Shown here piece by piece: positions 31,017-37,837 of a stretch of 64,000 bases of DNA. The DNA is from Armatimonadota bacterium (lineage in GTDB: Bacteria > Bacteroidota > Ignavibacteria > OLB7), in NCBI GenBank assembly GCA_020850315.1, contig JADZEY010000010.1, positions 1 through 64,000 of the forward strand, given 5' to 3'. Under the pieces are notes generated by a model. That model was not told the DNA's origin and made no database searches. It saw only the letters and a program-made list of their open reading frames with translations. The stretch's first letter is position 1. Every line of letters starts with the position of its first letter. Made by a program: the position numbers and the translations under genes.

Positions 31017-31979
31017 ATGGCCAAATACGTCCTGGAGTTTGAGAAGCCAATTTTAGAGATTGAAGAAAAAATCTCCGAAATGAGGTCAATGTCCGATCAA
31101 CTGGATATTGGACCGGAGATTGAGGTGCTGGAACAGAAAGTGGAGCGGCTTCGCAAAAGCGTGTATGAGCAGCTTACCCGTTGGCAGCGGGTGCAGCTTG
31201 CCCGCCACCCCGACCGCCCCTACACACTGGACTACATCGCCATGATCTGCGATGACTTTTTTGAAATGCACGGCGACCGCAGCTTCGGCGACGACAAGGC
31301 GATTGTTGGGGGGCTTGCCCAAATCAACGGGCGCAAGCTGGTGCTGATTGGCCAGCAAAAAGGGCGCGACACCAACGAGCGGAAAGTGCGCAACTTCGGA
31401 ATGCCAAACCCGGAAGGCTACCGCAAAGCCTTGCGGCTGATGAAGTTAGCCGAGCGATTCTCCCTGCCAGTTGTCACGTTGATTGACACCCCAGGGGCCT
31501 ACCCAGGGATTGAAGCCGAGGAGCGGGGCCAGGCCGAATCCATCGCCCGCAATTTGTTCGAGATGGCGCGGCTGAAAACGCCAATCGTCAACGTGGTAAT
31601 CGGCGAAGGGGCAAGCGGTGGGGCATTGGGAATCGGAATGGGGGACACACTGCTGATGCTGGAAAACACTTGGTTCTCGGTTATCTCACCCGAATCCTGC
31701 TCCAGCATCTTGTGGAAAAGCTGGGACTACAAAGAACAAGCCGCCGAAGCCTTGCGCCTTACCGCCGGCGATTTAGTGGAAATGGGGATTGCCGATGGCA
31801 TCATCCCCGAACCAATCGGCGGCGCGCACCGGCTGCCGAAGGAGGCCGCCGATTTCCTGAAAACTGCGCTGATCCAAGCGCTGGACCAACTCACACAACA
31901 ACCAATTCCGCAACTGCTGCGCCAGCGTCGCGACCGATACGCAGCAATAGGTGTTTTTAATGATGCAGCTGTGGCATAG
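31017..31979 (+). CDS. accA: acetyl-CoA carboxylase carboxyltransferase subunit alpha
   Basis: [63 protein letters not shown]. Confidence 0.96.
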
Positions 31980-32124
31980 CTTGCCCACAATGTTGCCAAG
32001 CAAAGTTGCCAAGCAAACCCACTTCTTGATGCTTTGGAGACAGATCAAGAAGCAATAGCAAGCCGGGTTGCGCACTGTAAACGCGCCTGACCCAACATAC
32101 ACTACTTTCCACCCAAGGGGAACC

Positions 32125-34062
32125 GTGAAACAACAACGCAACTACGGGTACGCCGATAATGGAGACGGCTACTCACAGCGGAACGGTAATGGAGCCCGTT
32201 CCCAACGCACACGCACCGACGGTGCGCAACGCCGCCCACCGCGTGGTGGCCGCCGCCCAGCCACGCCAGCTGTGGATGAATCAGCGGCCCGGAAACGCCG
32301 CCCACGCGTCTTTTTCCCGCACAACTACACGCGGCTGCCGCTGCCAAAACTGCTGACGCGCGCGCGCTATTTATCGCCAGCATTGGCCAAGCAGTTTATC
32401 CTTGCTGGGCGAATCCGTATCAATGCCCGTGTGGTGACTTCCCCATTCTACGAAGTCAACCTGCGGAAGGAGCGCGCCACCATTGATGAGCTTCCCACCG
32501 AATATCCCCGCCAATGCTACTACATGATCTTCCACAAACCGATTGGGATGGTCTGCGAGCGCGGGGATCCAAAGTTTGATGAGCTATTCGAGCCAGAAAG
32601 CACTTGGAGTTTCCCGTTCGGGCGGCTTACCCGCTCAAGTTGCGGGCTGGTGATCCTGACGAATGATCCCCGATTCATCAAATCGCAGCACCACACCGAT
32701 TCCGAAATCCAGAAAGAGTATCTGGTGAAAATCAACAAGGTGCTGACCGACCAACAACTGTGGACCTTACGCTCCGGTGTGATGGTTGGGGATGATTATT
32801 TCGTCCCGCTTGGCCTTGAGGTGATCCAGACCAACAAGAATAGCATGTGGCTCCGCTACATTCTGCTGGAAGATTCCTACCAGCACATCTTCAGCTCGCT
32901 GAAAGTTGTTGCTGCCGAAGTGCTCCGGATTGAGCGCACCCGAATCGGAATGCTGAACACACAGATGATTCCAAACGGCGAGTGGCGCGAACTGCTCAAC
33001 TTTGAGATTGCGGCCTACAACCTTGAGCGATTCATGTTTGGCCAGCTTCCCCCACCGCCGCCACCGCCCCCCCGCGAGCACCGCGACCGCGACAACTTCC
33101 GCCGTCGCAAACCGGAATCACCCAAAGAACGCCGCCGCCGCATTGCCGAAGAAAAACGCAAGGCTGAAGAACGGGAAATGATCCTGCTGGATAATCCCAA
33201 CGCAGTATTCGACGACCGTCCGCGGTTTGGTGGGCGCGGCGGCGACCGCGACCGCGACCGTGACCGTAACCGTGGGCGCGACAACCGGCGCGATAACCCA
33301 CGTGAACCGATGCGCGACCGTCCACGCGACGCCCGCCCCGGAAGCAGTGGCGACCGTCCGCGCAGCGACCGCCCACGCAGCGACCGCCCCGGCAGCAGCG
33401 ACCGCCCACGCAGCGACCGCCCCGGCAGCAGCGACCGCCCACGCAGTAATGATCGTCCATTGCGCGGCGACCGTCCCGGTGGCGACCGCCCACGCGACGA
33501 CCGTTACCGCGATAACCGCCCAGGGCGCGACGAGCGTGGAAGTGCCAGCGGAAAAGAGTTCCAGAAAGAGCGCAGGCCGGACGCGGCAGGAAGGCCAGCA
33601 GGACGATATGATGGGGGCGTGCGCGACAATCGCGAGCTCCGCCGCGACACCCCACCGGGCGGAGCCGGACCGCAGCGCGAGTTCCGCAATCCTGGGTTCC
33701 CGTCCGACCGACCGGAACGGCGGAGCGATGCGGATCCAAGAAGCAGGCCAACCGGTACACGGCCCGATCCGCGCGGGATGGGAGAGAGGGGAAAACCACC
33801 AGCACCCGCCCCCCGAAGCGACCGTCGCGACAGCGAGCATAACGCCAATCGCGGAGGGCATGGCGATGCTGGAGCTATGAAACGTGGTGGGGAGCACCGG
33901 CCAAGCACACGCCCAGCGGGCCCGCCGCCGCAACACACGGAACGCCCCAAACCGGAGTGTCCGCGCCCGCCGCAATCAACGGAGAGAAGCGATGAGCAAC
34001 CGCAGCAAGGGACGCGGCAAAAATTAGGCATGAGGACGCGCCGGGGGGAGAAAGGGGAATAA
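32125..34062 (+). CDS. RsuA/RluB-family pseudouridine synthase homologue, predicted inactive, with long Arg/Asp/Pro-rich tail
   Basis: S4-like domain, FHKPIGMVCERGDP, GRLTRSSCGLVILTND (Asp replaced by Thr), KEYLVKI; probable GTG start at 32125, ORF open from 32068. Confidence 0.85.
   Translation: MKQQRNYGYADNGDGYSQRNGNGARSQRTRTDGAQRRPPRGGRRPATPAVDESAARKRRPRVFFPHNYTRLPLPKLLTRARYLSPALAKQFILAGRIRINARVVTSPFYEVNLRKERATIDELPTEYPRQCYYMIFHKPIGMVCERGDPKFDELFEPESTWSFPFGRLTRSSCGLVILTNDPRFIKSQHHTDSEIQKEYLVKINKVLTDQQLWTLRSGVMVGDDYFVPLGLEVIQTNKNSMWLRYILLEDSYQHIFSSLKVVAAEVLRIERTRIGMLNTQMIPNGEWRELLNFEIAAYNLERFMFGQLPPPPPPPPREHRDRDNFRRRKPESPKERRRRIAEEKRKAEEREMILLDNPNAVFDDRPRFGGRGGDRDRDRDRNRGRDNRRDNPREPMRDRPRDARPGSSGDRPRSDRPRSDRPGSSDRPRSDRPGSSDRPRSNDRPLRGDRPGGDRPRDDRYRDNRPGRDERGSASGKEFQKERRPDAAGRPAGRYDGGVRDNRELRRDTPPGGAGPQREFRNPGFPSDRPERRSDADPRSRPTGTRPDPRGMGERGKPPAPAPRSDRRDSEHNANRGGHGDAGAMKRGGEHRPSTRPAGPPPQHTERPKPECPRPPQSTERSDEQPQQGTRQKLGMRTRRGEKGE
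33220..33540. repeat. coding repeats encoding RDRDRDRNRGRD and RPRSDRPGSSD units
   Basis: cgcagcgaccgccccggcagcagcgaccgcccacgcagcgaccgc... repeated. Confidence 0.85.
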
Positions 34063-34332: not shown

Positions 34333-35433
34333 ATGGGCACTACTTCCCTGTCGCTATTCCTATTCCTGCTCATAGGATACTGGAACCACATAAGCGCACA
34401 ACCCGCCGACCCCTTCTGTTTCCTTGGGGAAGTAAGTGTGGATTGCTATGATATTCATGGTAATCCAACAGGGAAATGTGTTGAACCTTGTTGTGATTGG
34501 ATTGATACGGTCAAATACGTCAAGGGCTATTGCCTCCCTTCTGCGGGAGGTGGGCTTAGTAACAATGGAAATTATGGGGATGGTGATGTCTGCCATAATG
34601 ATGTGGAAGGATGTAAAACGTGGAGCTTTGTCATTCGGAATAAATGGCAAGGGAAAATCAAAAGGATAGTATTGTGTTCCTATTATAACGAGAACTGTTG
34701 TCAAGAAAAGCCCATAACACCATTGGATACGTGTCAAGTCATCAGTCAGGATCCTAATCATATTTGTGATCTTTGCTGTCCTTTTACAACAAGTGGTGCA
34801 GGAAATTGGGTTGAACATGATTCGTGCCGAAAAATACTTGGGGGTAATTGTGGGTCAGATACTTTAGCAGATGGATATTGCGATTCTCTTTGCCGCTCGA
34901 ATTGTTTAATTGTTCGCCCTGCTTTCCCTGGCAATGAACTAGATCCGAACGAGTGTATAGAGCTTAAAGTTGGATTTACAGGCGCACAAACTAAAAAATG
35001 CATACGCATTTGTGTCTATTTTGGACAGCTTAATATATCTGGTCATGATTCCGTGCATTGCTGTGATATTACACTCCCTGCTTCTGGTGTACCTCCTAAT
35101 AAAAATCCAGCCTTAGTTCCATGTAACCCACCACAGCTATCAGGAAGCTCTAATTTATCATTTAATAGCATAAATCCTCATTCGATTCGCGTAGATAAAG
35201 GAGCAATAACATTTGAATCTACTTCATCAATCTCAGGTCATTATGAGATTTATGATAGTTCTGGAAAAGTACGAAGCACGGCATCTCAAAACCTATTCAA
35301 AGGGACAAACACCGTAAAAATTCATGAGTCTGATATTTCAGATGGTCCACACGGATTAAAATTTGTCTCTAGTACCGGAAAAGAGTTTATTGTTGCGGGC
35401 TTTCAGTTGAATCACAATAATGGGGGCAAATAG
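34333..35433 (+). CDS. Cys-rich secreted protein with putative T9SS-type C-terminal domain
   Basis: Signal peptide MGTTSLSLFLFLLIGYWNHISA; 26 Cys by hand count; C-terminus YEIYDSSGKVRSTASQNLFKGTNTVKIHESDISDGPHGLKFV. Confidence 0.7.
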   Translation: MGTTSLSLFLFLLIGYWNHISAQPADPFCFLGEVSVDCYDIHGNPTGKCVEPCCDWIDTVKYVKGYCLPSAGGGLSNNGNYGDGDVCHNDVEGCKTWSFVIRNKWQGKIKRIVLCSYYNENCCQEKPITPLDTCQVISQDPNHICDLCCPFTTSGAGNWVEHDSCRKILGGNCGSDTLADGYCDSLCRSNCLIVRPAFPGNELDPNECIELKVGFTGAQTKKCIRICVYFGQLNISGHDSVHCCDITLPASGVPPNKNPALVPCNPPQLSGSSNLSFNSINPHSIRVDKGAITFESTSSISGHYEIYDSSGKVRSTASQNLFKGTNTVKIHESDISDGPHGLKFVSSTGKEFIVAGFQLNHNNGGK

Positions 35434-35434
35434 C

Positions 35435-37837
35435 ATGAAAACCAGAATTTTTTTTCTTGCCTATTTGTTCATAACCATAATTCTTCCAACTGCACTTGCT
35501 GCACAGGAAGAAAGTGGGTGGGAAAATCCATTTGGAATTTTGGGGGCAAATGGCGAGGTGACAACAATAACAAGGGTAAACGAAACCATACTTATCGGTG
35601 GGAAATTTACACACGTAGGGGCAACACCAGCGAATGGTGTTGCTCTCTGGGATGGCAAACGGTGGCATCCGTTAGGTGATAGAAAGAATAATGGGGTGAA
35701 TGGTAGCGTTTATGCCATTGCAGTGAAAGGTGATGAAATATATGTGGGGGGAAGTTTTACCCAAGCAGGGGATATTGCTGCAATGAACGTCGCTGTTTGG
35801 AACCAAACAACGAAGCAATGGAACGCCATGAAAGGTGGAGTTCGCGGAGCAATCTTCCCATTCGTTTCGGATATAGCCGTACATAACGGGAACGTATATG
35901 TTGGCGGATTATTCACGCAAGCTGGTGGAGCCTTAGTTTCCAACATTGCAGCATGGGATGGGAATACGTGGAGCAGGGTAGGCACTGGGACCGATGACGC
36001 AGTTATATCAATAACACTACATGACGATATCCTGTATGCAGGCGGAAGATTTTCGACAGCAGGAGGTGTTGAGGCCGGAAAAATTGCTGCGTGGGATATT
36101 CCTGAGCAGCAATGGCGGAATGTAGGGGATGGTATTACTGGAAATGCGGTTAATGCTATCGTTGCCAACGATACAGCTCTTTTTGTTGGTGGAGATTTTG
36201 TTGCTGCAGGAGCCAAACCTGCCAAAAATCTTGCAACCTGGCAATATCATAGCAAACGCTGGGATACTATCGCATCAATAAACGAGGGTGTGCAGACGTT
36301 GGTTTTTCACAACCAAGACCTGCTTGTTGGCAGCGATGAGTTTGTACGCATACATAATGGGCGGATAACGATTCTTGACTCATCCGCTTGGAAAGCTGGA
36401 GCACCGGAGGGAAGGCCAACAATTGGGTCTATCCAAGTTGGGATGAATGGTGAGGTCATTGTCGGTGGTTTGTTTCATAACATTTATTCGGCACAGCACT
36501 CAAGGTTTGATAGCCAATTTGTCCGTGTTCAAAATCTTTTCGCGCTCTATAAAGATTCGATTTCTCTCTATACAAATTCAGTGAATGGCTCGGTTTATAG
36601 TCTTTTTGCTGATAATAAAAACATCTATGCCGGTGGACAGTTTACTCACGCAGGAAGTGGCTTATCCCGAAACCTTGATGCATGGAGCTTACAGAATCAG
36701 CAATGGCAAGCAGCAGATATATCAATCACAAAGGATACTAAAGGTCTAAGAGATGATGTCATTAGATCCATAATTGTCATTGAAGATACTGTGTATGCTT
36801 CTGGCGGATGGTTGTGGCGGTCGCAGGGTAGATCAGGCATGAAAATCCTAAAAGAACAGCAGATATTTGGTGGTGTACTGCTACGCCATAATAACCTCCT
36901 GTATATTGTAAACGGGCAAGGGGTATCCTCTATTCAAAATGATAAGCAAGTACTGATTGCCCCTAAACCTACAAACTATACATATGGGCCATACATACAT
37001 TCTGCTTTGATACATGATGAATATGTTTATATCGGTGGCTATTTCGGCTTTGATAGCAATGGTGTGAAAATCACAGCATCGTTAGGGCGATGGGACGCTA
37101 CCACAGAAGAATGGAATTCTGTTGGTGGTATTGTTGATCGGGAAGCCTATTCTATTGCTATGGACTCAGCAGGGAAAATCATTATTGGAGGGGTATTGAA
37201 AAAAACTGGAAATATTCCTGTGAAGAATATCGCTATGTGGGATCCATCCACTGGGGAATGGTCAGATATGGGGGGCGGAGCAAACGACACAGTGTTTTCG
37301 GTGCTTGTCTATCAGAATAACGTTTATGCGGCTGGTGCGTTCTCCGAAATTGGTGGAATACGCGCTAATCGTATTGCCCGGTGGGATGGTAAGCAATGGC
37401 ATCCGTTAGGGCTTGGAATACAAGGCAGCAGTGGTGTGATTGCATTGGCAATAAACGATAGTGGCCACCTTTATGTAGGCGGTAATTTTAGCAGTGTAGA
37501 TGGCATCCCAGCCCACAACCTTGCTCGATGGAATACTACACTACCGCAGTCATCAGCGGAAATTGTAGCATCTACAAAGCACGTGTTAGAAGTCAGCAAT
37601 ATCTACTGCACAGGGCAGCAGCAACTGGTTATTTCTTTGGCACGACCGATACGTGGCGAAGCAACCGTTGAGATATTCACGATTGTTGGGCAACAGGTAG
37701 AATCCTTTCAGTATCAGTTGAATAATGATGCATATCAACTGTCAGCTGATCTCTCAAAACTCCCCTCAGGCTATTATTTCTGTACAATTTCTGGGAATGG
37801 AGAACGCACAACCCAACGCCTGATGATTGCACAGTAA
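35435..37837 (+). CDS. secreted propeller-repeat protein with T9SS type A sorting domain
   Basis: Signal peptide; repeated xVGGxFTxAGxxxAxNIAxWD...W units; C-terminal VEIFTIVGQQV...LPSGYYFCTISGNGERTTQRLMI. Confidence 0.85.
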   Translation: MKTRIFFLAYLFITIILPTALAAQEESGWENPFGILGANGEVTTITRVNETILIGGKFTHVGATPANGVALWDGKRWHPLGDRKNNGVNGSVYAIAVKGDEIYVGGSFTQAGDIAAMNVAVWNQTTKQWNAMKGGVRGAIFPFVSDIAVHNGNVYVGGLFTQAGGALVSNIAAWDGNTWSRVGTGTDDAVISITLHDDILYAGGRFSTAGGVEAGKIAAWDIPEQQWRNVGDGITGNAVNAIVANDTALFVGGDFVAAGAKPAKNLATWQYHSKRWDTIASINEGVQTLVFHNQDLLVGSDEFVRIHNGRITILDSSAWKAGAPEGRPTIGSIQVGMNGEVIVGGLFHNIYSAQHSRFDSQFVRVQNLFALYKDSISLYTNSVNGSVYSLFADNKNIYAGGQFTHAGSGLSRNLDAWSLQNQQWQAADISITKDTKGLRDDVIRSIIVIEDTVYASGGWLWRSQGRSGMKILKEQQIFGGVLLRHNNLLYIVNGQGVSSIQNDKQVLIAPKPTNYTYGPYIHSALIHDEYVYIGGYFGFDSNGVKITASLGRWDATTEEWNSVGGIVDREAYSIAMDSAGKIIIGGVLKKTGNIPVKNIAMWDPSTGEWSDMGGGANDTVFSVLVYQNNVYAAGAFSEIGGIRANRIARWDGKQWHPLGLGIQGSSGVIALAINDSGHLYVGGNFSSVDGIPAHNLARWNTTLPQSSAEIVASTKHVLEVSNIYCTGQQQLVISLARPIRGEATVEIFTIVGQQVESFQYQLNNDAYQLSADLSKLPSGYYFCTISGNGERTTQRLMIAQ

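What the first reader, a model, noticed from the sequence alone, without database searches (positions are those of the whole stretch)
32125..34062. Apparent pseudouridine synthase pseudo-enzyme with a long disordered Arg-rich tail
Seen: the S4-like region and RsuA/RluB fold motifs are kept (FHKPIGMVCERGDP, KEYLVKI, GEWREL), but canonical GRLD is GRLT (FGRLTRSSCGLVILTND), so the catalytic Asp is replaced. The usual EG+xRQ(V/I)RRM motif is replaced by LEDSYQHIFSSLKVV. The C-terminal half is RDRDRDRNRGRD/RPRSDRPGSSD-type low complexity. Established: this Asp is essential in this family. Inference: the protein has been repurposed as a non-catalytic RNA-binding or ribosome-assembly factor, possibly phase-separating.
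Basis: partly seen in the sequence, partly recalled or inferred. Interest (0 to 1): 0.75.

Follow-up and report, generated by a model that had tools for sequence, protein, structure and literature searches.

The report
Conserved dead pseudouridine-synthase paralogue with disordered tails
This gene makes a protein that looks like an RNA-modifying enzyme (a pseudouridine synthase) but has lost its catalytic parts; the same loss is seen in related genes next to the same neighbour in dozens of genomes of one bacterial class, so it is very probably a preserved non-enzymatic RNA-binding protein rather than a decaying or mis-sequenced gene.

Summary
Window 32125-34062 (+, GTG start, 645 aa) encodes an S4 domain plus an RsuA/RluB-type pseudouridine-synthase domain. 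The catalytic Asp (RluB D110) is Thr, the motif-III Arg (R194) is Gln, the EG-x-NRQ-x-RR motif is gone, and Arg-rich low-complexity extensions flank the core. It is not an isolated oddity. A profile search found 46 such genes in 10 families of one class (Bacteroidota/Chlorobiota side) and none outside that class in a phylum sample. All lost motif III; 42 of the 44 aligned lost the Asp; all carry low-complexity tails. They form one side of a supported branch (96/86) against 34 active paralogues. Wherever both genes lie on one contig (38 of 38) the gene is downstream of accA on the same strand. The core is under strong purifying selection (dN/dS 0.06), and the clade fixed residues that vary in active paralogues (K260, E265, K202, W242). 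Active synthases coexist in the same genome. I conclude it is a conserved pseudoenzyme orthologue group, most likely a non-catalytic structured-RNA (rRNA) binding or assembly factor with a disordered RNA-interacting tail. That function, and phase separation, are inferred, not shown.

The parts
32125..34062 (+). Gene for the degenerate RsuA/RluB-like protein (645 aa, GTG start, stop included)
   Evidence: start and SD-like sequence kept in L007
32125..32298 (+). N-terminal Arg/Gly-rich low-complexity extension (about 58 aa)
   Evidence: 86% identical to L007, dN/dS 0.32
32335..32470 (+). S4-like RNA-binding domain (approximate limits)
   Evidence: Pfam PF01479, 24.5-26.6 bits; the RNA-anchoring Arg17 of RluB is Pro here
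32518..33015 (+). Pseudouridine-synthase-fold domain without the catalytic residues
   Evidence: PF00849 34.9 bits; TIGR00093 89.4 bits, below its 109.3 cut-off; PDB matches RluB, RluF, RsuA
32620..32631 (+). GRLT: motif II with Thr169 (codon 32629-32631) in place of the catalytic Asp (RluB D110); R167 kept
32860..32904 (+). Replaced motif III (ILLEDSYQHIFSSLK where RluB has LTEGRNREVRRL); RluB R194 is Gln253; includes clade-invariant K260
33049..34059 (+). C-terminal low-complexity tail rich in R, D, G, P, S (about 337 aa), with a 33-bp tandem repeat at 33362-33446
31017..31979 (+). accA (acetyl-CoA carboxylase carboxyltransferase alpha): conserved upstream neighbour

Best explanation
The protein belongs to an orthologue group derived once from an RsuA/RluB-type pseudouridine synthase in one bacterial class and preserved as a pseudoenzyme. 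It keeps the S4 domain and the synthase fold but lacks the nucleophilic Asp and the motif-III Arg cluster, so it should not isomerise uridine by the known mechanism (loss of residues shown; loss of activity inferred). It most likely binds a structured RNA, probably a ribosomal RNA helix in assembling ribosomes, through the S4 domain and the old substrate groove, as a non-catalytic assembly or chaperone factor. The long Arg-rich disordered tails would add low-specificity RNA contacts and may promote clustering (inferred).
For: Motif loss in the window protein aligned to solved RluB/RluF, and across the clade: D110 kept in 2 of 44 versus 34 of 34 active; N193 1 of 44 versus 34 of 34; R194 4 of 44 versus 31 of 34. 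46 members in 10 families of one class, none outside it in 398 phylum genomes. Degenerate rows form one side of a branch with support 96/86, with the motif columns left out of the tree. accA upstream, same strand, in 38 of 38 genomes with both on one contig; four class members without the gene have other genes after accA. Core dN/dS 0.060, against 0.107 for the active RluB-like paralogue and 0.055 for accA. Residues invariant or nearly so in the clade but variable in active paralogues: K260 44/44 versus 3/34, E265 44/44 versus 13/34, K202 43/44 versus 12/34, W242 41/44 versus 11/34. Low-complexity tails in all members; all 45 open frames are at least 325 aa versus 10 of 104 other hits. Active paralogues coexist. 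Rsu-type enzymes behave as assembly factors: RsuA prefers an assembly intermediate and its S4-like domain strengthens binding; inactive RluD/TruB mutants rescue growth (PMC7356742).
Against: No experiment or structure shows RNA binding. In the window's family the S4 anchor Arg17 of RluB is Pro. In E. coli, RluB itself did not improve growth of the 10-deletion strain, and inactive RluC did not rescue assembly (PMC11194073). Two members (G193, G169) still have Asp at the catalytic position. The gene is eroded or lost in several genomes, so the function is dispensable there.
Confidence: 0.55

Rival explanations
1. The protein still makes pseudouridine by an alternative active site or with another acidic residue.
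For: R108 and Y140 equivalents are kept in the window's family; G193 and G169 keep Asp and six members have Glu at that position.
Against: The catalytic position takes at least nine different residues (T, E, L, P, G, R, A, D, S) and motif III is lost in all; Asp is invariant in 34 of 34 active paralogues.
Confidence: 0.04
2. It is a regulator or partner of fatty-acid synthesis or of accA expression, for example by binding the accA mRNA, and its link to ribosomes is only ancestral.
For: accA is upstream on the same strand in 38 of 38 cases across the families; no promoter- or terminator-like site was found on the + strand between the two genes in the window.
Against: Neighbouring glycosyltransferase genes are also conserved, so the order may be plain conserved synteny; there is no sign of a direct AccA link.
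Confidence: 0.12
3. It regulates active paralogues by competing for, or shielding, the same rRNA site (a decoy).
For: Each genome checked also has other PseudoU_synth_2 proteins, and in the window's genome two of them were read and have GRLD; the fold is retained.
Against: RNA-contacting residues such as R17 and the bulge-binding loop residues of RluB are not kept uniformly, which argues against the same target.
Confidence: 0.13
4. It is a decaying gene or an artefact (sequencing error or mis-assembly).
For: A series of erosion to loss exists in one other family (G384, G547, then absent).
Against: dN/dS 0.06 in the core, conserved in four genomes of the family, clade-specific invariant residues, strict synteny.
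Confidence: 0.02

Closest known systems
RluB / RluF / RsuA (RsuA family of pseudouridine synthases)
   Same: S4 domain plus synthase fold; significant profile matches to 1ksk, 3dh3, 4lab (E 2e-26 to 1e-20); GRL, KEY and GEWREL-type motifs
   Different: Catalytic Asp and motif-III Arg lost; new invariant Lys/Glu/Trp; long low-complexity tails
Non-catalytic roles of RluD, TruB and RsuA in RNA maturation
   Same: Synthase fold acting on RNA without needing catalysis (PMC7356742)
   Different: Those are active enzymes with a second role; here the catalytic residues are gone throughout a clade
Human mitochondrial pseudouridine-synthase module (RPUSD3/RPUSD4/TRUB2)
   Same: Synthase-fold proteins acting in large-subunit assembly, some with no shown rRNA activity (PMC8067846)
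   Different: Eukaryotic, reported enzymes, of other synthase families (my knowledge); no close homology to this clade claimed

Membership tests
RsuA-family pseudouridine synthase (homology) | Sequence match to the synthase domain and S4 domain | tested here: met
   PF00849 34.9 and PF01479 24.5 bits, both over cut-off; PDB RluB/RluF/RsuA matches. TIGR00093 89.4 bits is below its 109.3 cut-off
RsuA-family pseudouridine synthase (enzyme) | Catalytic Asp in GRLD (RluB D110) | tested here: not met
   Thr169 in the window; 42 of 44 clade members lack Asp; 34 of 34 active paralogues have it
RsuA-family pseudouridine synthase (enzyme) | Motif III EG-x-N-R-(Q/E)-x-R-R with Arg194 | tested here: not met
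   LEDSYQHIFSS in the window; the motif is lost in all clade members
RsuA-family pseudouridine synthase (enzyme) | Base-flipping Arg108 and Tyr140 | tested here: met
   R167 and Y199 kept in the window; in the wider clade Arg in 21 of 44, Tyr in 35 of 44
RsuA-family pseudouridine synthase (enzyme) | Pseudouridylation activity | not testable with these tools
   needs biochemistry
accA-linked degenerate orthologue group (defined here) | accA upstream on the same strand, motif loss, invariant K260/E265/W287, low-complexity tails | tested here: met
Ribosome-assembly / RNA-binding factor | Binding to rRNA or pre-ribosomes | not testable with these tools
   inferred from the fold only
Phase-separating RGG-type RNA-binding proteins | Disordered Arg/Gly/aromatic-rich tail that drives condensation | tested here: inconclusive
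   Pooled tail composition fits (R 15%, G 15%, N+Q 15%, Y 6%); condensation not testable

The most novel reading that the evidence does not exclude
A class-wide family of natural pseudo-pseudouridine synthases that took on a new RNA-binding role (ribosome assembly or accA-linked post-transcriptional control), with tails that organise RNA-protein condensates.
Probability: 0.2. Interest if true: 0.78.

Novelty: new variant of a known kind. Interest (0 to 1): 0.6.

Why it matters
Pseudouridine synthases are long suspected of mattering for more than their chemistry. A clade that kept the fold under strong selection after losing the catalytic residues is a natural separation-of-function experiment. 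It also shows that domain-based annotation as 'RNA pseudouridylate synthase' is misleading for this clade. No paper found in the searched library describes such a family, but most subscription journals are not in that library.

Tried and rejected
AlphaFold2 on window plus L007 gave pLDDT 36, so no fold search was made. Sequencing error or decay was rejected by dN/dS and conservation. Convergence of the window's family with the other degenerate proteins was considered, because pairwise identity is only 25-29%, about that to active proteins; synteny with accA, the tree and shared invariant residues make one origin more likely. Two first-pass dN/dS values (N extension, accA) used wrong coordinates and were replaced by those.

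Full report
OBSERVATION. The ORF 32125-34062 (+) starts at GTG after AAGGGGAACC and codes for 645 aa; an alternative TTG start lies at 32068. Pfam finds S4 and PseudoU_synth_2, both above cut-off. TIGR00093 (pseudouridine synthase) scores 89.4 bits, under its cut-off of 109.3. Against solved structures the core matches RluB, RluF, RsuA and RluE. The alignment places Thr169 on catalytic Asp110 of RluB and Gln253 on Arg194, while R167 (Arg108) and Y199 (Tyr140) are kept. Their roles are from the RluB-RNA structure paper PMC3919597: D110 is catalytic, R194 is in motif III, R108 flips the base (R108A has 0.6% activity) and Y140F has about 3% activity.

NOT ALONE. In the window's family four of five genomes have the gene; the other three cores are 94%, 60% and 56% identical to the window's, and all four read GRLT. 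The 94% relative is also a named record, 'Chlorobiota bacterium isolate new MAG-306'. Several of the best hits in other families of the class were also degenerate. A 12-row profile searched in 394 genomes of the class found 45 genes at 208 bits or more, plus G233 at 176 bits, in 10 families. In the phylum sample of 398 genomes, hits at E <= 1e-52 fell only within the class.

THE FAMILY. In all of them motif III is gone. The catalytic position is T (15), E (6), L (5), P (4), G (3) or another residue, and Asp in only 2 of 44, against 34 of 34 in active paralogues. Where accA and this gene lie on one contig (38 genomes), the gene is always downstream of accA on the same strand, its core 0.36-3.1 kb away, much of the gap being the gene's own N-terminal extension. 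In six more, accA is on another contig, several of these because the gene sits at or near a contig end, and two have no accA hit. In four class members without the gene, accA is followed by other genes, in most a thioesterase-like gene and a nadC-like gene (named by eye from the translations, not by a family search). So the window's gene and the others are best read as orthologues in spite of 25-29% identity.

ORIGIN AND SELECTION. A tree of 44 degenerate and 34 active cores, with the catalytic and motif-III columns removed, puts the degenerate ones on one side of a branch with 96/86 support. The window's family attaches nearest the active ones. The bootstrap had not fully settled, and some branches are long. 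Between the window and L007 the core has dN/dS 0.060 and the active RluB-like paralogue of the same two genomes 0.107; accA has 0.055. The C-tail is looser (0.25), as is the N extension (0.32). The clade fixed residues that vary in active paralogues: K260 (44/44 versus 3/34), E265 (44/44 versus 13/34), K202 (43/44 versus 12/34) and W242 (41/44 versus 11/34). That pattern fits a new constrained function, not decay. Fisher p values ignore relatedness and are only descriptive.

TAILS. All members carry low-complexity extensions: mostly N-terminal, mostly C-terminal in the window's genus, both in G398/G399. Pooled composition is R 15%, G 15%, N+Q 15%, D 8%, Y 6%, with few I, L, V. All 45 open frames are at least 325 aa, against 10 of 104 other Rsu-type hits. 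Tails as such are not unique: some active enzymes have them (L042 and L133).

LOSS. In one family (f6) the gene erodes: G384 (246 aa) and G547 (271 aa) keep only parts of the core at the same place after accA, and the three genomes of genus g8 whose accA neighbourhood was read (L148, L150, L158) show other genes there. G652 has a copy cut by the contig end. So the gene is not universally essential.

PARALOGUES. The window's genome has five other PseudoU_synth_2 proteins; two of them, at C29 and C119, were read and have GRLD. The other genomes checked also have further PseudoU_synth_2 proteins. The degenerate gene does not replace them.

FUNCTION. Best inference: a non-catalytic structured-RNA binder, probably in ribosome assembly. 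Support is by analogy: RsuA prefers an assembly intermediate and its S4-like domain strengthens binding; inactive RluD and TruB rescue growth (PMC7356742); some rRNA-modifying enzymes act in assembly without catalysis, although RluC and RlmN need theirs and RluB expression had no effect (PMC11194073). Target RNA, ribosome association and condensation are untested. Structure prediction failed for want of a permitted deeper alignment.

Noticed in passing
L090 (G193) and L111 (G169): Two members of family f5 keep Asp at the catalytic position (GCLDK), and G193 has a KQIR stretch in the motif-III region; they may be intermediates or reversions.
   Followed up: partly
L194:1524-2261 and L198:1168-1980: Further-eroded copies (open frames of 246 and 271 aa) at the same place after accA in family f6, without the long tail: a visible series from pseudoenzyme to loss.
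   Followed up: partly
L042, L133: Active (GRLD) RluB-like proteins with long low-complexity N-terminal tails (open frames 493 and 733 aa), so such tails are not confined to the degenerate clade.
   Followed up: partly
window upstream of 31979, and related loci: Glycosyltransferase-like and sugar-transferase-like genes upstream of accA are kept along with accA and the degenerate gene across many families.
   Followed up: partly
window 35420-37837: An 805-aa ORF with repeated 'YVGG.F..AG' type motifs and a C-terminal stretch that looks like a secretion-sorting domain; not tested.
   Followed up: no
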